NCBI GenBank assembly: GCA_001630475.1
Contig: KV419420.1
Coordinates: 1 to 64,000 of the forward strand
Origin: Sistotremastrum niveocremeum HHB9708
Lineage: Eukaryota > Basidiomycota > Agaricomycetes > Sistotremastrales > Sistotremastraceae
DNA: 64,000 nt
Reading direction: 5' to 3'
Part shown: positions 1 to 63,000 of the stretch, piece by piece
Layout: each line of letters starts with the position of its first letter
Numbering within the stretch: position 1 is the stretch's first letter
Program-made: the position numbers and the translations under genes
The notes under the pieces: model-generated
The model's input: only the letters and a program-made list of their open reading frames with translations
What the model was told of the DNA's origin: nothing
Databases searched by the model: none

Positions 1-59
1 CTAACCGCTAACCTAACCGCTAACCTAACCGCTAACCGCTAACCTAACCGCTAACCTAA
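1..59. repeat. Telomere-like heterogeneous repeat array
   Basis: The array alternates the units CTAACCG and CTAAC; on the other strand it reads TTAGCGG and TTAGG. The C-rich strand runs 5' to 3' into the window, which is the orientation expected at the left end of a chromosome. The array stops abruptly at a truncated MULE gene, as would follow from telomere addition to a broken end. The canonical basidiomycete repeat is TTAGGG, so this would be a variant repeat. It could instead be a subtelomeric satellite, because the true end cannot be seen. Confidence 0.7.
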
Positions 60-1705
60 GATACATGCCAGAAATCTTGTTCAAACAACTTCAACTGATT
101 TTGGAGGACTGGCGACAGATTGCGGAGTATATTTCCATGAAGATGGTGGAGGCAGATGATGTGGTACGTGGTGGGATAGACGGTGGACAACATGCTTCGC
201 AGAGCTGTATCGGCATCAGAAACGAGGACTTTGGGAGGGTTTTGAGCCGTTTCGAGATGCTGACGATGAACCCAGATGTGAGTAGCAGCATCTTCGCGGG
301 CTTGGAGACAGAACCAAACACATCTGGACTTGCAATGGTTATCGATAATCATGCCGATATTAAGTGCATAATCATATACGTTGCGATTGACTGTGGCATC
401 GGTGATGAGAATATCGTAATACCTGACTGCAAGCGCTCTCTGTTTAGGAGATTGCCACCACAGAGCCGTGACAACAGCCTGATCGTTGGTCAGGGTCTTG
501 AATGTCCACAATGGATCTTCAAGTCGCAGACGCTCAAGCTCAGCGATGATGCTGGGAAAATCTCCACCTAATTTCTCAACCTCCTCACGAGCCTCCCTAC
601 GAGCCGAATTGAGCAGATTTGAGAGTTGTCGGACTTCCAAAGGGTGATCTGGATTTTCCTCTCCATTCTTCTGATCAGTAATACGGCGTAGGTGTCTCCG
701 ATTAAATTTCTTTAATGAGCTTCTTCTCATCTGCTGTTGGAAGCCGACAAGGTTTTGCACCCTCTGGAATCGTACGCCCATGATTGTGCTCAGAGACGGG
801 AAGACTGATGTGCCAGAGCTGTGATCCTTGATCGATGGGAAGATTATAGTGTACAGGACACCCACAGCGGATAGTCTTGCCTTCTCGATGGTCACTAGGG
901 TCGATCGAAGGGCTATGAGATGGTTTTCGATGATAAGCAGCAGGACAGCGAAGGACAAGCTTCAATAACTGGCAAGTGTGGGGGTGCTTCTTGGATTGAT
1001 CCGTCTTCAGCCTATGACCACGAGCGTTCTCGTATGCATGTAATGCCACAATTGCGTCATTCAAGTTCAGATATGCCTCTCCCACTAACAGACACGGATT
1101 CAGAGCACTTCGAGGGTCTGTATTCTGGGGCGAGGGAACTCGTGACGCTTGATTGGACAAGTTCGAATGACCACGGAGTCGATTGCGTGGGGGGTGGGAG
1201 TTATCGTAGGATTGAGACAATGGTGGGGGAGTGGGAGATCTGTGACGCTTGAGCTCTGGTTTCCGTTCTGCCAGAGCTTCAGCATGAGGAACAATTGATT
1301 TTTTTGTAGGAGGAAATATAGCTCACCTGATCGAACTGGTATGACAGGTTTCTTATCCATATTGTTACTGTCCTCGCCAATACCAAGACGATGTGACGCT
1401 TCTTCCCGTTTTATTGGCACTTTAATATCCTGAGCGTCCTCCTTGATCCCAGCACTTCGGAATCGTAAGCGTGCTTCAGAAAGCTGTGATCCTTTGAGTA
1501 TGACCACATGGGAGCTCCTACTGGAGTCTGATCCCGAAGAGATGCTGATAACATCTGGGTCTTTCACAGTTGTGAAAGAAATGCCCTTATAACTCGAAGA
1601 TGAATGGGTATCAAGCTCGACTTGCTCGTCAGAATTGGACTGCATCGATTCATCGGATGAGTGAATACGATTCGCGGTCATATCCATCGGATGACTCTGA
1701 ATCAT
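56..1705 (-). pseudogene. MULE transposase (FAR1 DNA-binding plus MULE domain), truncated
   Basis: The DNA-binding part (1220-702) has the FAR1/WRKY-GCM1 zinc pattern: a paired cysteine (RCGCPVHY) followed by an HNH triplet (LPVSEHNHG). The catalytic part shows the first MULE aspartate in ITDATVNRN, the second in VLVSDADTALR, and the downstream C..H pair in HIICLHHLHGN. The protein then runs into the telomere-like array and terminates there, so the last catalytic acidic residue and the C-terminal SWIM zinc finger are missing. At about position 703 the FAR1 part ends in a stop (KLIKEI) while the matching continuation (NRRHLRRI) lies in another frame, so there is one frameshift or an unrecognised intron. 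The upstream stretch to 1705 is rich in Ser, Asp and Glu and looks disordered. Assignment to MULE is firm; activity is excluded by truncation. Confidence 0.85.
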
Positions 1706-5063: not shown

Positions 5064-8000
5064 GTGTCGATGAAGATGGTGCGTACAACGGCTGTAACGA
5101 CACCTTTTTGTCCTTTGTTCCTAACCATCATGACAGTTCAACTCTCCTGCAAGCTTTACCTTCGCTGTCTGCTTTGCAAGGGCAAACTGACAGACTGCGC
5201 CGACGTGCACACTCATAAGCAAGTGCATCGACAGTGTCCCGCCCCTCCTCCTCCTCCTCCTCCCACTGAACCGATTGCTCAACGGTCCTGTATTCTATGC
5301 GAAGTCAAATACCCCGAAACTGCTCGACACTTTCCGCGTCTTTTCAAGAGCGCCAGCAATGCTGATCAGCCTTCTGACAACTTCCATCTTCGATGTCACC
5401 GCTGTATAAGCAGGAAGAAATGTCAACATTGCAGAAAAAAGAAAATTCTGTCAGAATTTGGATTGACCCGAGGAGGCAATACCAAGGCTCACTGCTCCCA
5501 ATGTGCTTTCCATCGCGAAAAGAGACGCAAAGAGGAGATCGAAGCCAACAAAGGTGAGTACCCTTGTATGTGAGCAGAAAAATCAATACATATCTACTTT
5601 CACTCAGAAACCCGTCGCTGCAAATCGTGCAAGATACACCTTCCATACGCCGCCTTCAACCGTTGGGGAGAAACTCAATGGAGACGCGATTGCAGGGAGT
5701 GCCAAAAGAAAGGAGACGACATGGAGAGGATAGAGAGACAGTTACGAGAGCACTCCGACGAGCTGGATGAAGCAGAGGCGCAAGCTGTGCTTGATGAAGA
5801 AATAGCGGAAGACGAAGACGATTATTGGAACGAATTCAACGATCTGGATACTTCGACTATCCCCACTAGCGACCTCGATGACTCCCATCCTACCGACGAC
5901 ACATTCTCTGCTCAAAATCATGAGGCCGCCAACAAGTTCGAAGAAGACCTGAAATCCGTTCGCTACACCGATTGTGAGCTCTGCTGTGAGAAGTTCTGGA
6001 CCCTCAAGGAGGGGGCCACAAAATGCAATCGCTGTCAGAGGTTTCCGGTGAAGGGAAAAAAATATTCCGCCGATAACGACATGGATCCAGGTGCGCATAG
6101 TTTTTTCCAGCCCGTGTCAGAATGAAATTCACCATAGTGTATAGGAAAAGTCGTTCCCGATTGTCTGAAGGACCTCACGGATATCGAAGAACAGCTGATA
6201 TCTCTCACCAGACCTGTTATTCAAGTTCGCTACGTTAAAGGAGGCCAGATTCGCTATCAGGATCATATTTGCAACTTCGTCCAGCACGTCGAAGAATTAC
6301 CACCGCAACTCAGCAACCTCCCCCAGCAATTACCCCGCCGTCCTCGCGATCTTGATATCGTTATCATCCGCCATACTGGTGTCGATCTCACCCGCCATAT
6401 CGATTTCAAGGTCAGGAAGACGCATATACGGGACGCTCTCCACTATCTATGCGCAAATAATCCCCAATATCGAGATATCGAGATCGATGAAGATCTAATT
6501 GCAAATCTTCCCGATAATGGATCTATAGCACAAGATCTCGTTGTACTCGAAACGGAAGGTACACACCAAGCGGAGGTGGTCCCTGCTCCTGGCCCATCTC
6601 AAAGTGCTGGAGATGCCGCCAACGAACCCGAAGAACAAACCGACGTTCTCGGGGGTGTCCTGAACTTGGCAGAGGATCAACGCGAGTCTGCTGCTATCAA
6701 CGATGTGCTACAAAGATGCGCTCAAATGGATACTCTGCCGGTCGACACGACAATTGTGAGCAACAATTACATTTCAGTGACTAGCAATGCTAATAATACC
6801 TAGATTCGCGCTCCGTCAACAGACCGTACACCCATAAACGAAAGGACACCAGGTTACATCATCAGAGCCTTTCCTACCCTCTTCCCAAGAGGCATTGCTG
6901 ATCTGCATGCCCCTCGTTCAGACCAAATCAGTACCCCTGATTGGTTTGAACACATGCTTCGCTTCTATGACGGCCGCTTCTCTCGCCATCGTAGATTCGC
7001 TTGGTTTGCTTTCAATACAATTCAACAGGCCCGAGCCGCAGAGCATGCCAAAATATATGTAGGCCAAGAAGCGGGTGAAGGTCATCTAACAGTCGAAGAT
7101 CTGCGCGCTATGATTGACGCCGGCGACGGAGCCCTGGCTGGAAGAATGATGCGATATGGTCGACTACTACGAGGCACACGCGCCTATTGGGCTACTCGTC
7201 GAGCGGAACTCAAGGACATGATCGACGTACTCGGAACTCCTCACCTGTTCATCACATTCTCCGCTGCCGACAAACAATGGGCCGATCTACACAAGCATAT
7301 GCCGTATCAATCCAACCCTCACGACAGCCCACAAGCTCAAGCTCAACGTACTCAAAACCTAAACGAAAATCCACACATTGCCGCCGGCTATCTTGACCTT
7401 CGCTTTCGACGGTTTATGGAGACTGTCATCAAGCCACTATTCAAGGTCAAGGTCAAGGACTTTTGGTATCGATATGAATGGCAGGAGCGAGGGAGTGGCC
7501 ACATTCATGGTTTCTTCTGGCTTGACGACGCACCGAACCCCGATGATCTTGACTTCTCCCATCTGTCTCCTTCGACGAATCCATCAGATGGACGCCCAAA
7601 GGAAGCTTCCGAGGAGATGAAGAAGAAAATCAAAGATTTCGAAGAGTTCTGGGATGAACATATCTCCGCGATCAACCCTAGAGTCTACGATGGCGACCCC
7701 AATGTACCCAATGTCAGCCGCAGTCCGGTCTCTATGCCACGAGAAGAAATGAAAATGGAAGATGCTCAACTGGCCGACATTGTCAATTGCGTACAGAGAC
7801 ACCGGGAATGCAAACCAGGCTACTGCGAAGTCAAACGGCACGGTCAGGTCGTATGCCGATTTGACTTTCCATTTCAGCTATGCGACAAAGGAAGAGTTGG
7901 AGTGGACTCTCTCGGCAGACCTCGATTCGAAGCACGGCGCAATGATCCTTATACAAACTGCTATAACCCGACACTCCTCATGCTCTGGCGCGCGAATATT

Positions 8001-10617
8001 GACATCAAGCCAATTCTGAGTCGCTACTATGTAATTAAGTACAGCTCCTTGCTCAATCAAAGACGATGTCAGATTGACTTTTCAACAGATACATTGCCAA
8101 GTATGCTACAAAGGCAGAGAAGGATGCACCAACCTTCCCTCATATGCTTGACAAGATAATCCGAGATGCACCCAATGATATGACAGCGCAAAGTACCTGT
8201 ACAAAACTCTTGAACAAAATGCTCTCCGAACGAAAATATTCTGCTCAAGAAACACATCATCTCCTCCTCGGTATACCTCTCTATCGCTCCAGTAGATCCT
8301 TCTCCGCCCTCTCGCTATCAAGTAATGGCGCGCTTCGCCTCATTCGAGAAGAGAGGGAAACCGCACTCAATGCCGAAGAGCCTCCCGCAGCGCCTTTGAA
8401 TCGATCAGGCCGAATTGTAACCTCAAAGTCTGATCTGGAACGGTATTGCGAACGTCCGCCAGAAATGGAAGAACTATCTTTGCACACAGTCTTAAGAGAA
8501 TATCGATGGGAGAAGAACAAATATATTCGACGGAGGGATCAGAATACTCTTCCCATCCTCCGAGTATGGCCTCGCCTTCCTCCCAATCCTGACGGAGAAT
8601 CGTATGAAGAGTGGTGTCGGATAAAGCTTACACTCCATCACCCTTTCCGCAACGCCGAAGACGATCTGCTAGGGATGTATCATTCATGGAACGAAGCTTA
8701 CATCGCTCGCTTAGGTCCTTCGCCAGTCCTACCTCCCGATACTCTATGGAATGACTGGACTCCAGAACCGGACCCAAAAGACGAGGAGGATGACGATGAA
8801 GAGCTTGAGGGCAAAGATCAGACAATGCAGGCTACCGACTGGCAGGTCCTCGCTCAATTACATCCAGGCCAAGAACTTCCCGAGGACACCGAAGAGCTTG
8901 GAAATCGCCACCTCGACACCATGTTGAACACTCAGGACGGATGGAATAGATGGGAGAATAATAACAGAGATGAGATGGGCCAATACCTCACTACCGCGCG
9001 TAGAGAATTCCATCAGGATACAGATCCAACGGAAGACTCTTGAGTCGATCTTGACAACCTCGTCAGGAAGCATTTCAACAAATCATCGACGGAAATCCCA
9101 ATCCCTCTTTCGCTTTCAATATCGATGGCACTGCTGGCACCGGCAAAACCTTCCTCATCAAAGCTATTCGTCAGACTCTTGGAGATATGGCCCGCGCAGC
9201 AAATCGACCCCATCCTCTTCGAGTATTGGCACCTTCGGGTGTTGCAGCTTTCAATGTCGAAGGTTGGACTATTCATTCAGCACTATCTATACCGGTCCGA
9301 GTCAACAACAAAGACGAAGGCATGCTCCCTCTCAAAAACGAAAAATTGAGAAAGATTCAAGAAGACTGGGATGGCATCGAGTTTGTCATTATCGATGAAA
9401 AATCCATGCTTGGGTTAGCACTATTGGCTCAGATTGACTCCCGCCTCCGCCAACTTCGTCCTATGGATACCTGGCTCGGCGGATTCAGTGTTGCACTGAT
9501 TGGCGACTTCTATCAGCTCCCACCCGTTGGCGACATTGGTCTCTTCTCTCCTCCTCCCTCTCCAACAAACGAATCCCCTCGATCGAATCTGCAACGACAC
9601 GGAAAGGCTGTTTACCGGCGATTTGATGTCAGCTTCGAACTCACACAACTCCTTCGTCAACAAGGAGGCGGAGATGCCGGCGATCGATTCCGGGACCTCT
9701 TGACTTCAGCTCGAAACGGCGAGTTATCGCGTGCTCAATGGGAATTGCTTTCTACGAGACATTGGGAACGGCTATCTGCAGATGATCACCATCGCTTAAA
9801 GAATTCTGTGTGCCTATTCACAAGGAAAGAACCGGCGCACGCCTACAACCTGCAGAAGCTCACGCTCAGCGGAAAACCCTGTGCTCGCATTAAAGCTACT
9901 CATGAGGGAGGACGAGAAGCAGCGAGAGCATCATCTGAGATTGGTTCTAATCTCGATGCCGAATTACTCCTCAGCATCGGGGCCAAAGTCATGCTAACAA
10001 GAAATCTTTGGACCGAAATGGGTGAGTGACAAGCATTGTGCCTGTTATGCTAAACTGTCGCAAGGCCTTGTGAACGGTACCGAAGCTGTGGTCGAAGACA
10101 TTATCTGGGGTCCGGATGCCGAAACAACTTCAAGTCTACCATATGTGGTCCTCGTCTCAGCACCCAAATACAAAGGTTTGAGACTCTTATTCCGAATTCC
10201 TTACTGACTATCAAATTAGGACCAAGCTTATGGGAGACCGAAGACAAAAGACAATTAATCCCTATAGTTCCATTCAAGACTCACTGGCAGCCGACTGGAT
10301 CATCACGAACCGAACATACTCGAACTCAGATTCCGTTACGTCTCGCATGGGCTATTACAGTACACAAGTCACAAGGTCTAACTCTCGGCGACGGCGCAAG
10401 GATTGCTCTCGGAACTAAAGAATTTAGCACGGGCTTGACCTTTGTCGCACTCTCACGTGTTCGGACAATCAACGACATCGCTCTTATTGAAACTGTCGAC
10501 TACAATCGTGTGAAGAACTTGGGGGGAAAGGGAGACACTATGGAACAGCGCAGGCAGGATAAACGACGTCGTTACCCAGCAGTAATTACTACAGTAAATA
10601 CAGAAAACTCAGAATGA
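5064..10617 (+). CDS. Helitron RepHel protein: zinc fingers, DUF6570-like, HUH Rep, PIF1-type helicase
   Basis: Exons join in frame over short introns. The N-terminus has several C..C knuckles (5200-5720), then an acidic region, then a DUF6570-like part from about 6150 (PDCLKDLTDIEEQLISL, followed by RPRDLDIVI). The Helitron N-domain begins near 6850 (FPTLFPRGIADLHAP). The Rep nuclease has the two-His motif HIHGFFWL (about 7500) and the tyrosine motif YYVIKYIAKYATK, restored by the 50-bp intron 8039-8088. The helicase has Walker A GTAGTGKT (about 9128), Walker B-like VIIDEKSM, LIGDFYQLPPV, AWAITVHKSQGLTL and FVALSRVR, with introns at 10022-10064 and about 10177-10218. The one doubtful joint is 9000-9070, where the Rep frame meets a TGA (9041-9043) before the helicase frame opens: either a missed intron or a break. 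Start at 5064 or 5070 is by eye. Confidence 0.85.
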
Positions 10618-47975: not shown

Positions 47976-50517
47976 TCAAACCAAGCTCATTACTCCGTTA
48001 ACGTCGACTGTTTCAGATCTAGACTGTGGCCCCGACATCGTTTGAGATTGGAGCTTCAGCATCGCAATTCTCTGGCGTTCGATGGTGGCATACGCGGCGA
48101 GCATCTCTTGCATCGAAGGCATCAGCACATTCTGACCAAGGGTTATGTTGTATTGTGAGTGTAATGCGTCTGATCCGTACGAAGCATCAAGAGATGGGAG
48201 AGGGCCTCGGCTGCGGGAAGAGTCGGGGGGGCTGAGAGGCCTGGCATCATTGATGAAGGATCTGGTGGAATGGGTGGTTAATTGAGGCGTGTGCTCAGCT
48301 TCTGGAGGTTGGTATGGCGTGGTGATCGAGGATTCGGAAGGGGTTGGATGTGAGAGGACTAAATCAGGAGTACCATTCGCGGTGTTCGACGTGCTATACC
48401 CAAAGTAAGCCGGATCGAATAGCGCTTGCTGGTTCATGGCGTCTTCTAATCCTGAAATGAACGTCTCTGAAGGCTGAAGTGATGCATTCAATGCGTTGAG
48501 ATGATAATGTTCGGGCGTGACAGGCGGGGCTCCCAATCCGTTAACGCGATTCGGCGAAGGACCGAGCATATGGGTTGATTGGCCCAGCTCTGCAGATGGC
48601 TGCAGAGACTGGACACGTTCTTCTTCGTCACATTGTGCAGACTCCTCGGCTGCCGATATCTTGAGCGATTTTTCCCTTTGTAGGGGAGGCTGGTTCAGAT
48701 ATCCCCCGCCGTCCCACATTGAAAGGGAGGATGACTGTTGGATTGTTGTCTGCGAGTTCTGCGAGTTCTGCGAACGAGGCGGGGAAACAACGCGATTCTG
48801 CACCAGACCTGGAGGTTGGGTCCGATAGTATTTCGTGGGTCGATTTTTGGGCTCCATGGTCGAGGGGTCCAGGATCTGTCGAAGGAACACTGGCGTTGTA
48901 ACATCGTGCGATGTAGGTAGTGTTTGAAAGTCAGGTTAAGTTAGGTTATGGGCCCCTCAGAGGCCCTAACCGTAACCAAACCACGGTTATGGTTAATGGG
49001 TTTTGCTGTAACCTATAACCGCCAACGGTCACGGTTAAGCCAAAATTGGGTGACCATGACCTGACTTTGACCGGTTAATGCGGTTATGACCTCAAAAAAG
49101 TCATAAATCTCCACTTTTTACTACTTAATCTAGGTTATTGGTCCTCATATATGATGTATATGACAAGCAGAACACACCAGAAGGCCTGGGAAAGGCTGTA
49201 GACAAGGATCTACCCATGTTGGTCAAGGCAAGCGGTTAAGGATTCCGGGGAGGTCTATGACTGTGACTTGACCACCAGCTCTGAGCCATGACCATTAACC
49301 ATGGTTAGGTCACAAATGGTTAAGTTACGGCTAAGTCGCGGTTATTTGGCGGTTAAGTGACCTGACTTGCAAACACTAGATGTAGGTTGTGGCGTGGAAT
49401 GCAAAGAGACTTCGGCTTGGGTTCCTGCTTGCCAGACTGTTACCATTTCCGGAGGCACTTCTGGTATCGGGTCTCGATCTGTGGTGCGATCCACAAAGGG
49501 TTCATTGGCGATTCGGTGCGTATTCACCCTGGAAGCAGTTTTCCTCTTCACTGATGAAGAAGAGTAGGGATAGCAACGAATACCGCAAAAATACAGGTAC
49601 TCGTGGGTACTCAAGTACAGGTACCTGCTTACTAAGCAAACACGAGTCCAGATACGGCCCGCTCTGGGAAAAAAATTCAAAATACAGGTACCCGTAGGCA
49701 GGTACCTGTGTTTTTAGGCAGAGGGACTCGCGGGTACCTGAGTACGAGTCCAGCATTTTGGCCCAAAATCAGAGGCAGATACGAGTCCACAGCCTGAAAA
49801 AAAACCGCAGGTACCTGCGCACAGGTACCTGAGTCCACGAGTATATACTCGTTGCTATCCTTAAAGAAGAGTATGGGGATGCGATACTATCGTTCCTAGC
49901 GTGACGGATTCGTCTTCCAGAGTCTGCGTCTATCGGCGATCCATGACTGGGGACTGATTTTACAACAGGTAGCGCTGAGCGTGCTGGTGGATGAGTGATG
50001 AAAGTGAATTGTGGTTGCCACAGCCCCGGGCCAACGTTCGTCAAAGAGATCAATAACAGGTTCTCGATTTCGAAAGGGGATGGTGAAGTGAAATCCTGTC
50101 TATTCGTCTGTACATCGAATTGTCAGTGCCCCGAGTCGTTATGCTAGCTATGGCTGACAAACTTTATGAAATGTGTAGGTTTGACAGTAAATCTGCCATG
50201 CTATGTGTAGCTTCTGACAACCATAGAGCTCGATTCTTTGCTCGAACTGGTCAGACCATCCATCCCACTGATCATCAAAATCAGACTCTGCGAGTCCATC
50301 GGACTTGCTAACGCACATGAAAAGCCAATAACACCGACTCTGGTTGGAAGTATGGAGCACCATCGTCCATTATCACTTCGTGAGCCCCCGTCAAAGCTGC
50401 GGCTGTCCCCGATTCATGATCAGCGAGGGGAATTCCAGGTTGGCCTCCCTTCCGATAAAACGTAATCGGTTCTTTTGACTGATATGGAACAAGGGCGAAT
50501 TGACTATGCGAGGTCAT
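47976..50517 (-). CDS. Unrecognised 549-residue host protein gene, interrupted by two hAT MITEs
   Basis: Exon 1 is 50517-50317 (MTSHSQFALVPYQ; FYRKGGQPGIPL), exon 2 is 50267-50163 (WDGWSDQFEQRIEL), and exon 3 starts at 50095 (DFTSPSPFEIENLLLISL). Introns are 49 and 67 bp. Exon 3 is split by MITEs at 49565-49863 and 48918-49378. Leaving out both MITEs and one 8-bp duplication each, the coding segments (201, 105, 232, 178 and 934 nt) total 1650 nt, exactly 550 codons with the stop. The N-terminal 150 residues recall an uncharacterised basidiomycete family with a WPGY-like motif (from memory). The middle has a basic patch (SSVKRKTASR), the C-terminal half is Ser/Pro/Gln-rich and ends with a short helix (MLAAYATIERQRIAML). 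A nuclear regulator is possible but unproven. Confidence 0.7.
48918..49378. mobile_element. hAT-type MITE family A, copy 1 (461 bp)
   Basis: Terminal repeats TAGTGTTTG(A/C)AAGTCAGGT are flanked by the perfect 8-bp duplication GATGTAGG (48910-48917 and 49379-49386). The body is rich in GGTTA/TAACC words. A second copy in the opposite orientation lies at 53577-54035. Confidence 0.95.
49565..49863. mobile_element. hAT-type MITE family B (299 bp), in the same exon
   Basis: The ends TA(G/A)GGATAGCAACGA(A/G)TA are inverted repeats, flanked by the perfect 8-bp duplication AAGAAGAG (49557-49564 and 49864-49871). The interior repeats the palindrome CAGGTACCTG four times, with degenerate copies. Confidence 0.92.
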
Positions 50518-53576: not shown

Positions 53577-54035
53577 TAGTGTTTGCAAGTCAGGTCACTT
53601 AACCGCCAAATAACCGTGACTTAGCTGTAACTTAACCATTTGTGACCTAACCTGGTTAATGGTCATGGCTCAGAGCTGGTGGTCAAGTCACAGTCATGGA
53701 CCTCCCCGGAATCCTTGACCGCTTGCCTTGACCAACATGGGTAGATCCTTGTCTACAGCCTTCCCCAGGCCTTCTGGTGTGTTCTGCTTGTCATATACAT
53801 CATATATGAGGTCCAATAACCTAGATTAAGTAGTAAAAAGTGAAGATTTATGACTTTTTTGAGGTCATAACCGCATTAACCGGTCAAAGTCAGGTCACGG
53901 TCACCCAAATTTGGCTTAACCGTGACCGTTGGCGGTTATAGGTTACAGCAAAACCCCCAAAAATAACCGCAGTTAGGTTACGGTTAGGGCCTCTGAGGTG
54001 CCCATAACCTAACTTAACCCGACTTTCAAACACTA
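53577..54035. mobile_element. hAT-type MITE family A, copy 2 (459 bp), nested
   Basis: This is the reverse-complement copy of 48918-49378, with few differences. It is flanked by the perfect 8-bp duplication GCGACCGT (53569-53576 and 54036-54043), so it jumped into the family C element after that had inserted. Confidence 0.95.
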
Positions 54036-60064: not shown

Positions 60065-63000
60065 CTAATCTATCTCCTGAGGTTCAAGCTCCTCTACCTG
60101 TGTTGCCGGAACAGATATCACAGAATCGGTATCTAGATCCCGATATTTCTGGATCCAAGGGCACTCAACATTAAAGCCATGGAGAGATGGAGCCCAAAGG
60201 TGCGCAGACTGCACTGCCATTGTGCGCCACATCTCAGACTGTTTGTGGCAGTATGCAGTAAGACCTGCCTGAACTTCATCAGATGCTTCCATACGTTGCC
60301 CTAACTTATCTGTCCACCATTGTGACTTCCACTCAAAATAAACAAGCACTCGTCGCATCTCCTCAACCACAAGTGTGCACTCTTCTTCCCAGCGTTTCAT
60401 GCGTGAGTAAGCTTTCACCCAATCCACACGCATAGCTGTAGATTTTTTTAGCTTGAAAATACTATAGCAACATTGAAACTGACCAATTGCATCTCCTTCC
60501 AAATGATCCCCAGGAGCCGACCAAATCCAACTCGGTTGGAAGTCCCCTTCTCCAAGACGTCTCTGACGATAACGGTGGGCAGCAGTACCTTGATCGTCGT
60601 CCTGATCTTGTAGCTGAGGGCCTTTACAGTCAGCTGCTCGGAGTAATTTGAAGGTTGCCATCCATGATCCATTGGGCTTCAATGCCTGGAGTGCATTATA
60701 GGAGAGTCGGTAAATATCCGCAGCTTGAGTGATCTTCTGTTGATACTGTGCTAGAACTCCACCAGCACGTGTCCCACTGCGCTGTCCTCGAACATTAGCT
60801 TCTTTGGCTTTGTAGATGTTAATTTTCAGTCGTATGGCACGACGTAGAGCTGTTAATGCTGACTCGCAATGGGCCATTCGGAGACGCTGTTCCTTTAAGC
60901 AGAGACCATCGGTAGTACATCTCTGACGATCAGAACATGTGGCCCCTTGTTCAACTGTGTCGGAAAGATGGGAAGGGAGTAATAATTTGACAGTAAGTGG
61001 TTGCAGGTCAACTTGTTCACTATCTTCAGTATCTTCATCCTCGCCACGTAGTAATACTTGAACACCAGGCATGTGGCTATACTGAAGGTCCCGCCAAGCA
61101 TGGATTTTACGAAGGAGAGCTGACTTGCGTTCACCGTAAACTGCTGCTAATGAACTTCCAATCTTGGGTTTATCCTCAGCAAGTTTTGCATTGAATTTAA
61201 GTCTAAACCCATTTCAGTGATGCAATCATCAAAATCACTTTTCTCACATGGATATTTCAAGATTGATTCCACGATCAAGGAATTCTGCTGGACTGACATT
61301 GTCCACTTCAAGTATCATGCCTTGTGCACGCTCCAACTCTTCTTGCTGTGCCACTAATACACGGTTGGCAGACTGAGCTTGCTCTGTGATACATTATCAG
61401 TAGGAGAACATCAACCACTGAAGTATCACGCACCATCATTTGGCTCTTGGAATGGATTTGGAGCATTATGAGGATCTTTCTGCCATGTGTTGAGCATTTC
61501 TGTCCATTCTGTGACATTGGCATCACTGGTCACTTCAGACAGTGACAGAAAGGCTGCTTCTTGTTTTGCCAAGCCTGCCTTGGCCAAATGAAATTTTGAG
61601 AGAAGTGTTATCCCTGCCAAAACTTGTCAGCAAAGATTATCCATTTCCAAAGGCAGAACTTACCCATCTCTTTGATCTTGCGCCAATTCCAAGACCCCAA
61701 CAGATCATCCATGGAATCATGCCTGTTTGCTGCTGTTTTCTCCTTATGACTACTACTATATGGGCCAAGATGTGCCCATCCTCTCTCAATACCCTCTCCA
61801 TCAAGCCTTGCTGAGCCTTCACGGTAGTTCAACGAAAATGGACACTGGCACTTCTCTCCGTGAGCGGGCAGATGAAACTTTGGAATCACAAAGATCAGAA
61901 TGAACAAAAAGAATGTTGCTGCAAGTTCAGGTGGATATCCTTTGACGCGCTCTCGCAGATTTTTTGACCATTGACAAGCAATATCATAGCTGATCAGTAT
62001 TTGGCACACTGTTGCACCAAGGATACTGGACAGAAATATGTAGTCCATGTTGACATAACTGTTGGGGTTTGAGACAGGAGACTCAAGACATATGAAATGT
62101 ATCTCACCGTTCTCCGACTTGAAGGTCACCAATGCCATTCGGCCGAACAAGGCCATGTCTTCCACATATTACAGCGCCAACCCCAGTAACAGTATAGCCT
62201 TTGTGACTTTTCAGATGCGCTCGCTCGATCGCACGATGTGTTGAGTCACAATCACTAGTCTGTTTGCAATGAGTTTAATCCATTACAGTCAAGCTCCACA
62301 TACCTCAATCACAAGATCCTGAGATTTACTGATCTGTTCCATATACTTGGTATGTTCCACAAAGTACGCCCATCCAGAACCTAGCTCTGGGTCCTTCGAA
62401 ATCCCCCGATCCTTCAGTTTTAGTCTGAAGTTGGCGTCAATGGCCAAATATAGTGTGAATAACCATCTAGCATGCTAATCAGCTTGGTATATATCGACAA
62501 TCATAGATCTGTGTCATACAGGTTTGCAGCACAATGTTGCCAATCTGGTGGTAAGTTAATTGCCGGATGTGGGCATGCTGGACATTGCAGTGCCAGGGCA
62601 CCTTGGGCCGTATTAGCAATCCCATTGTCTTCATGAGCTCGACCCGCTCGCTTAAGCATTTGCAGGTGTCGATAATAACGAGTACAGTGACCAAGATCAT
62701 CATATCGTTTCTGTACATTAATTGATAACCTTAAGTGATACATGCACAGTAAACACTCACTGGAACATTAACCGTTCCGGAGTTATCGGTTAAATTTTGT
62801 AAGGCTGAGTGATACTGATGTGCCGAAAAACCAGAGACACTTGTGATTTGATGGAATAGCTCAAGGAGATCAAACGTAAAAGCAGTTTGAGGTTTATCTT
62901 GCGACGCCGGGAACCATTTCACACGCAGAAGTTGGTTTCGCTTTAGTAAGTCATTGGGGTTTGTAGAACATCCACAGAAGACCACGGCGACATCATGGAA

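What the first reader, a model, noticed from the sequence alone, without database searches (positions are those of the whole stretch)
47976..50517. One gene hit twice by different hAT MITE families
Two MITEs (299 and 461 bp) with perfect 8-bp duplications sit 186 bp apart in one exon. Leaving them out gives 1650 nt of open frame over three exons. Two insertions without other decay suggest recent activity or an insertion hot spot, or tolerated splicing of MITEs as new introns.
Basis: partly seen in the sequence, partly recalled or inferred. Interest (0 to 1): 0.7.

Follow-up and report, generated by a model that had tools for sequence, protein, structure and literature searches.

The report
Fungal gene split by two MITEs
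A low-copy fungal gene has recently had two short, non-coding jumping-DNA elements land in its last exon; this looks like ordinary transposon damage that cuts off a variable tail, and nothing in the sequence shows that the elements have become introns.

Summary
A minus-strand gene (50517-47976) carries in exon 3 a 299-bp element (49565-49863, duplication AAGAAGAG) and a 461-bp element (48918-49378, GATGTAGG), 186 bp apart. Both are multi-copy: of 29 full-length 461-bp copies examined, 27 have perfect 8-bp duplications; of nine 299-bp copies, 8 do. Two distant paralogues share the gene's exon junctions, read by eye.

Recent activity is supported: 1 and 2 private substitutions. "No other decay" says little: a gene dead since insertion would look clean with probability about 0.3-0.5, 0.02-0.9 over the error range. 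Splicing of the elements as introns is not supported: their best sites score below the gene's own introns and no better than many random in-silico insertions. The two families also lie side by side on contig C11, but without the window pair this is weak evidence for a hot spot.

Most likely effect: the frame stops inside the 299-bp element, giving 214 aa that keep the conserved region and lose a 370-aa tail. Three of four paralogues whose end was read have little or no tail, so partial function is possible.

The parts
50317..50517 (-). exon 1 (67 aa)
   Evidence: open frame; corresponding exon-1/2 junction in paralogues on C59 and C24, by eye
50268..50316 (-). intron 1, 49 nt, GTGCGT...TCAG
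   Evidence: position corresponds in C59 gene A and C24, by eye
50163..50267 (-). exon 2 (35 aa)
50108..50162 (-). intron 2, 55 nt, GTTTGT...ACAG
49864..50107 (-). exon 3, first part (81 aa and 1 nt), with conserved motif GLWQPQFTF
   Evidence: five further genome places match this piece, E 4.8e-5 to 0.025; alignment
49565..49863 (+). element 2, 299-bp hAT-type MITE, no transposase coding
   Evidence: TIRs 16/18; 9 close copies examined
49557..49564 (.). target-site duplication copy of element 2 (AAGAAGAG)
49864..49871 (.). target-site duplication copy of element 2 (AAGAAGAG)
49769..49771 (-). in-frame stop met when the gene is read into element 2
49379..49556 (-). exon 3, second part (178 nt; the next 8 nt to 49564 are the second copy of the duplicated site)
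   Evidence: open in the expected frame
48918..49378 (+). element 1, 461-bp hAT-type MITE, no transposase coding
   Evidence: TIRs 18/19; 29 full-length copies examined
48910..48917 (.). target-site duplication copy of element 1 (GATGTAGG)
49379..49386 (.). target-site duplication copy of element 1 (GATGTAGG)
47976..48909 (-). exon 3, third part: low-complexity S/P/Q/T-rich tail and stop codon
   Evidence: 310 aa open, only itself found in the genome
53577..54035 (-). a further copy of element 1 with duplication GCGACCGT, 4.2 kb away, outside the gene

Best explanation
A low-copy, uncharacterised three-exon fungal gene was hit twice by recently active, non-autonomous hAT-type DNA transposons (MITEs) of two different families. 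Each was put in by a transposase supplied from elsewhere and each duplicated 8 bp of exon 3. On the gene strand the 299-bp element comes first: translation runs 31 codons into it and stops at 49771-49769. The expected product is 214 aa: the conserved N-terminal region, without the 370-aa low-complexity tail. The allele is therefore a tail-truncated, probably hypomorphic or null, copy. Shown: elements, duplications, multi-copy families, reading frame, stop. Inferred: hAT transposase as the mover, the transcript, loss of function. The order of the two insertions is not known.
For: Exact TIR and duplication anatomy; multi-copy families with perfect 8-bp duplications at 27 of 29 and 8 of 9 close copies; 1 private substitution in 461 nt and 2 in 299 nt; five hAT loci of the same genome with TAGNG ends and 8-bp duplications around a Dimer_Tnp_hAT domain; corresponding intron positions in two paralogues, by eye; stop in element 2.
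Against: No transposase with ends matching either family was recognised in the 20 of 21 hAT loci scanned, though looser matches (2-3 mismatches in 15) to element-1-type ends occur in several of them and were not pursued. 8-bp duplications also occur in Zisupton and Dileera elements (PMC12730594, passages), so the superfamily rests on end motif plus duplication. No transcript or strain data. Short-tailed paralogues leave room for a working truncated protein.
Confidence: 0.78

Rival explanations
1. MITE-capped working protein: the 214-aa product stays functional, because the conserved region is intact and the tail is dispensable; element 2 merely supplies a new 31-aa end and stop.
For: Of four paralogues whose exon-3 end was read, three end soon after the conserved motif (C59 gene A at once; C33 and C35 within about 40 residues); only C24 has a long tail. 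The stop lies in what appears to be the last exon.
Against: No expression or selection data. Exon-3 pieces of the paralogues are only 27-35% identical. A further intron in the short-tailed paralogues was not excluded, and at least three other family places (C59 gene B, C64, C9) were not read to their end.
Confidence: 0.2
2. The elements are spliced out as new introns (introner-like) and a near full-length protein is made.
For: In-frame GT-AG pairs exist: 57 of 120 candidates for element 2 and 12 of 163 for element 1 keep the frame open, for example 298 nt adding 9 nt and 487 nt removing 18 nt; one long intron over both elements scores higher, 7.75, at the cost of 183 nt of coding. Introners with 8-bp duplications that add 12 bp are in print (PMC9860276, passages).
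Against: Best single-element scores 5.94 and 6.75 against 10.0 and 8.7 for the gene's own introns; 67.8% and 34.2% of 450 random in-silico insertions each do as well or better; lengths 277-487 nt, or 959 nt for the joint one, against 49 and 55 nt. The joint intron had no control.
Confidence: 0.05
3. Insertion hot spot: something local draws both families together.
For: Second side-by-side pair on C11, 95 bp apart, same order and orientation, with its own perfect duplications; 2 pairs within 200 bp against 0.009 expected uniformly, P 0.009, 0.003 and 0.0009 after shifting element-2 copies within 20, 50 or 100 kb.
Against: The window pair prompted the test; without its element-2 copy one pair is left and P is 0.10, 0.06 and 0.04. 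0 of 406 element-1 pairs lie within 200 bp. No target motif seen by eye. At 3 of 6 copies or pairs whose flanks were given to Pfam a transposon domain adjoins, so preference for transposon-rich DNA could give the same clustering.
Confidence: 0.2
4. Assembly artefact at repeats.
For: Both inserts are repeats; no reads were available.
Against: Perfect matching duplications at both inserts and a reading frame that resumes in phase on each far side.
Confidence: 0.02

Closest known systems
hAT-superfamily MITEs
   Same: Short, no transposase coding, TIRs starting TAGTG / TAGGG (one end TAAGG), 8-bp duplications, many near-identical copies
   Different: No source transposase with the same ends identified in this assembly
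Introners / intron-generating DNA transposons (PMC9860276; search listing and passages seen)
   Same: TIR element with 8-bp duplication inside a coding exon
   Different: Splice potential no better than at many random placements; no intron use shown
Zisupton / Dileera (KDZ) transposons
   Same: 8-bp duplications (PMC12730594, passages)
   Different: The ends are of the TAGNG type seen on this genome's Dimer_Tnp_hAT elements; KDZ ends were not compared, as none could be delimited in the window

Membership tests
hAT-type MITE | 8-bp target-site duplication | tested here: met
   27 of 29 element-1 and 8 of 9 element-2 close copies perfect at the exact ends
hAT-type MITE | short TIRs with TA(G/A)NG ends as in hAT elements of the same genome | tested here: met
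hAT-type MITE | short, no transposase coding, multi-copy | tested here: met
   only short open frames inside both elements in the window; copies
hAT-type MITE | autonomous partner with the same ends | tested here: inconclusive
   Not recognised in 20 of 21 hAT loci. Genome TIR patterns showed no readable long element, but the element-1 list shows only the first 100 of 128 places (element 2). One wide pair had an interior that reads N
Introner | strong splice sites at or near element ends, giving open in-frame introns | tested here: not met
   in-frame pairs exist but are weak and no better than at random placements; scoring uses a recalled generic consensus
Introner | efficient splicing in RNA | not testable with these tools
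   no RNA data
Pfam DUF6741 (host gene) | score over the curated cut-off | tested here: not met
   13.3 bits against 27, E 0.092, collinear over 15-136 of 183 aa; two paralogue models gave no match; no exon match in the genome

The most novel reading that the evidence does not exclude
Element 2 has turned a long-tailed member of this gene family into a short-tailed one by supplying a new C-terminus and stop, mirroring the short-tailed paralogues, so that a MITE makes a working protein variant rather than a dead gene.
Probability: 0.12. Interest if true: 0.45.

Novelty: new member of a known kind. Interest (0 to 1): 0.25.

Why it matters
It is a clear record of recent DNA-transposon activity in a fungal genome, and a caution: intact flanking frames around recent MITEs do not show that the elements are tolerated or spliced. 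The second side-by-side pair on C11 and the short-tailed paralogues make two small questions (insertion clustering; truncation by MITE) directly testable in strain collections.

Tried and rejected
Rejected or left open: MITEs as introns; a close intact paralogue; an autonomous partner among Dimer_Tnp_hAT loci; a shared target motif (tables judged by eye, 27 element-1 and 10 element-2 sites, only weak preferences). Frames through empty sites gave no sign of preference for genes: of 39 copies the lowest fraction of random window positions doing as well was 0.08, at element 1 in this gene, where the 300-nt flank runs into element 2 and so is not a clean test. A PF14372 search rang nowhere, controls included, so it shows nothing. 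No paper holds the word DUF6741. Five literature searches listed no paper that I recognised as describing these two families; two papers were opened, passages only. The hot-spot odds were lowered from 0.25 to 0.2.

Full report
WHAT IS THERE. The window is the start of contig C27 of a 34.7-Mb assembly in 111 contigs. Short introns and gene content point to a fungus, probably a basidiomycete (inference; no species name is available). The 461-bp element lies at 48918-49378 between copies of GATGTAGG, and the 299-bp element at 49565-49863 between copies of AAGAAGAG. Their terminal repeats match at 18 of 19 and 16 of 18 bases, and 186 bp separate them.

THE GENE. On the minus strand, exon 1 is 50517-50317, intron 1 is 49 nt, exon 2 is 50267-50163, intron 2 is 55 nt, and exon 3 starts at 50107. 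Exon 3 is interrupted by element 2 (phase 1) and element 1 (phase 2). Element plus one duplication is 307 and 469 nt, and the frame resumes correctly on each far side. The pieces add up to 1662 nt with the stop. Two paralogues support the model, with junctions read by eye. On C59 (L032, gene A) introns fall at the corresponding two points and the gene stops right after the motif GPSLWQ. On C24 (L095) the same arrangement is followed by a 373-aa open, uninterrupted exon 3. On C33 and C35 only the second intron and exon 3 were fetched; there the motif is followed by a tail of at most about 40 residues before the stop, unless a further intron follows. Exon 3a finds five further places in the genome (E 4.8e-5 to 0.025) and exon 1 two, on C59 and C16 (E 0.025 and 0.042); the C16 place was not analysed. 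The 310-aa tail found no other copy, so no second, uninterrupted haplotype was found in this assembly. Pfam gives nothing over cut-off. The only hint is DUF6741 at 13.3 bits against a cut-off of 27, which neither paralogue model supports.

THE ELEMENTS. Genome search returned 42 matches to a 1001-bp query spanning both elements (40 of 93 candidates scored) and 40 to element 2 alone (40 of 52 candidates scored), so counts are lower bounds. One search gave 39 rows for element 1 and 17 for element 2. I dropped 10 and 8 of these as truncated, split or diverged (about 65-85% identical, or partial), which leaves 29 full-length element-1 copies at 87% identity or more and 9 element-2 copies at 96% or more. 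Perfect 8-bp duplications at the exact ends occur at 27 of 29 and 8 of 9. The exceptions are C46:213329 (7 of 8 bases), C86:27266 (a perfect match only at shifted ends) and C27:203123 (none). A perfect duplication is therefore normal for these families and does not mark this insertion as specially young. In the gene, element 1 has one private substitution in 461 nt and element 2 has two in 299. The nearest element-1 copies are 99.35% identical, 3 differences.

hAT MEMBERSHIP. The genome has 21 Dimer_Tnp_hAT matches. Of 20 loci fetched with wider flanks, five contain a terminal repeat pair with TAGNG ends and 8-bp duplications around the domain (C68, C24, C40, C46, C92). A sixth reported pair, on C25, matches only 10 of 14 bases and looks like chance. 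Compared by eye, none of these ends matches element 1 or 2. Exact element-1-type ends occur in two of the fetched stretches. One is the element-1 copy on C46. The other is a pair about 0.5 kb apart on C68, outside the hAT there. Looser matches, with 2-3 mismatches in 15, occur in several hAT loci and were not pursued, so a related source cannot be excluded. Genome-wide end patterns showed no readable long element, but one search lists only the first 100 of 128 places, and one 2-kb pair with related ends has an interior that reads N. The elements are thus hAT-like by anatomy, with their source unidentified. An 8-bp duplication alone would also fit Zisupton or Dileera (PMC12730594, passages).

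DOES 'NO OTHER DECAY' MEAN TOLERANCE? No. Three private substitutions in 760 nt give about 6.5 expected in the 1653 coding bases counted. Of all single-base changes 4.4% make a stop. With indels at 5-15% of substitutions (assumed), the chance of seeing no lesion in a gene dead since insertion is 0.28-0.54 at the point estimate, 0.77-0.88 at the lower and 0.02-0.17 at the upper Poisson bound. Only if the age is near the upper bound would the clean frame mean something.

ARE THE ELEMENTS INTRONS? A scan with a recalled generic fungal consensus found in-frame candidates, but the best scored 5.94 (element 2) and 6.75 (element 1), against 10.0 and 8.7 for the gene's two introns. One 959-nt intron over both elements scored 7.75 but would remove 183 nt of coding; it was given no control. 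In 450 random in-silico insertions per element in three window ORFs, in the same orientation as here, 67.8% (element 2) and 34.2% (element 1) did as well or better; in the opposite orientation 70.2% and 33.3%. The sites are ordinary. The scoring scheme is crude and RNA could overrule it.

HOT SPOT? On C11 the same two families lie 95 bp apart, in the same order and orientation, with duplications CAGTCAAC and GTCCCAGC. Pairs within 200 bp number 2 against 0.009 under uniform placement; shifting element-2 copies by up to 20, 50 or 100 kb gives P 0.009, 0.003 and 0.0009. Those figures include the window pair that prompted the test. Without its element-2 copy, one pair remains, the uniform expectation is 0.008, and P is 0.10, 0.06 and 0.04. 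None of 406 element-1 pairs is within 200 bp. I gave Pfam flank pieces of six copies or pairs. Three adjoin transposon domains: C40 sits within a copia gag-pol (gag on one flank, Pol_BBD on the other), C27:203-206 kb has a copia reverse transcriptase between its two elements, and C62:78742 has an integrase core near by. The pieces from C11, C62:89217 and C46:213329 gave nothing, although they looked transposon-like to me by eye. Preference for transposon-rich DNA may explain the clustering; it was not tested genome-wide.

LIKELY EFFECT. Read from exon 3, the frame enters element 2 and stops at 49771-49769, giving 214 aa: 183 gene residues plus 31 from the element. The conserved motif ends well before this. 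Three of four paralogues whose end was read are short-tailed, so truncation need not abolish function; this is my most novel reading, at 0.12. The ordinary reading, a recently damaged allele, is preferred.

Noticed in passing
L074 (C24:426248-427436): An element-1 copy is itself split by a roughly 0.7-kb insert with duplication CTCATATA; one of its ends starts TAGTGATGT, like the 4.8-kb hAT on C92, so it looks like a nested non-autonomous relative (by eye).
   Followed up: partly
L054 (C11:941506-942360): The same two MITE families lie side by side, 95 bp apart, in the same order and orientation, with their own perfect duplications.
   Followed up: yes
C27:203123-203420 (L059): An element-2 copy with intact TIRs but no target-site duplication, 2.1 kb from an element-1 copy, with a copia reverse transcriptase between them: possibly an ectopic recombination product.
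   Followed up: no
window 56-961, 6804-8159, 61608-62168 and 53577-54035: Other mobile DNA in the window: MULE transposase, Helitron_like_N, KDZ transposase and a further element-1 copy.
   Followed up: partly
L032 (C59), L095 (C24), L100 (C33), L101 (C35): A divergent gene family with corresponding intron positions where seen, no Pfam model over cut-off for the members scanned, and tails from none to over 300 aa.
   Followed up: partly
C57:57361-57648 and C57:87510-87797: Two diverged (85%) element-2 relatives on one contig with the same length and the same identity to the query, in opposite orientation, perhaps a duplicated segment.
   Followed up: no
L038 (C66), L044 (C9), L045 (C46), L047 (C25), L052 (C83): Ends of the kind TAGNGTTNNNAAGTC (2-3 mismatches to element 1) lie near hAT transposase domains; one of them may mark a relative of the missing element-1 source.
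   Followed up: no
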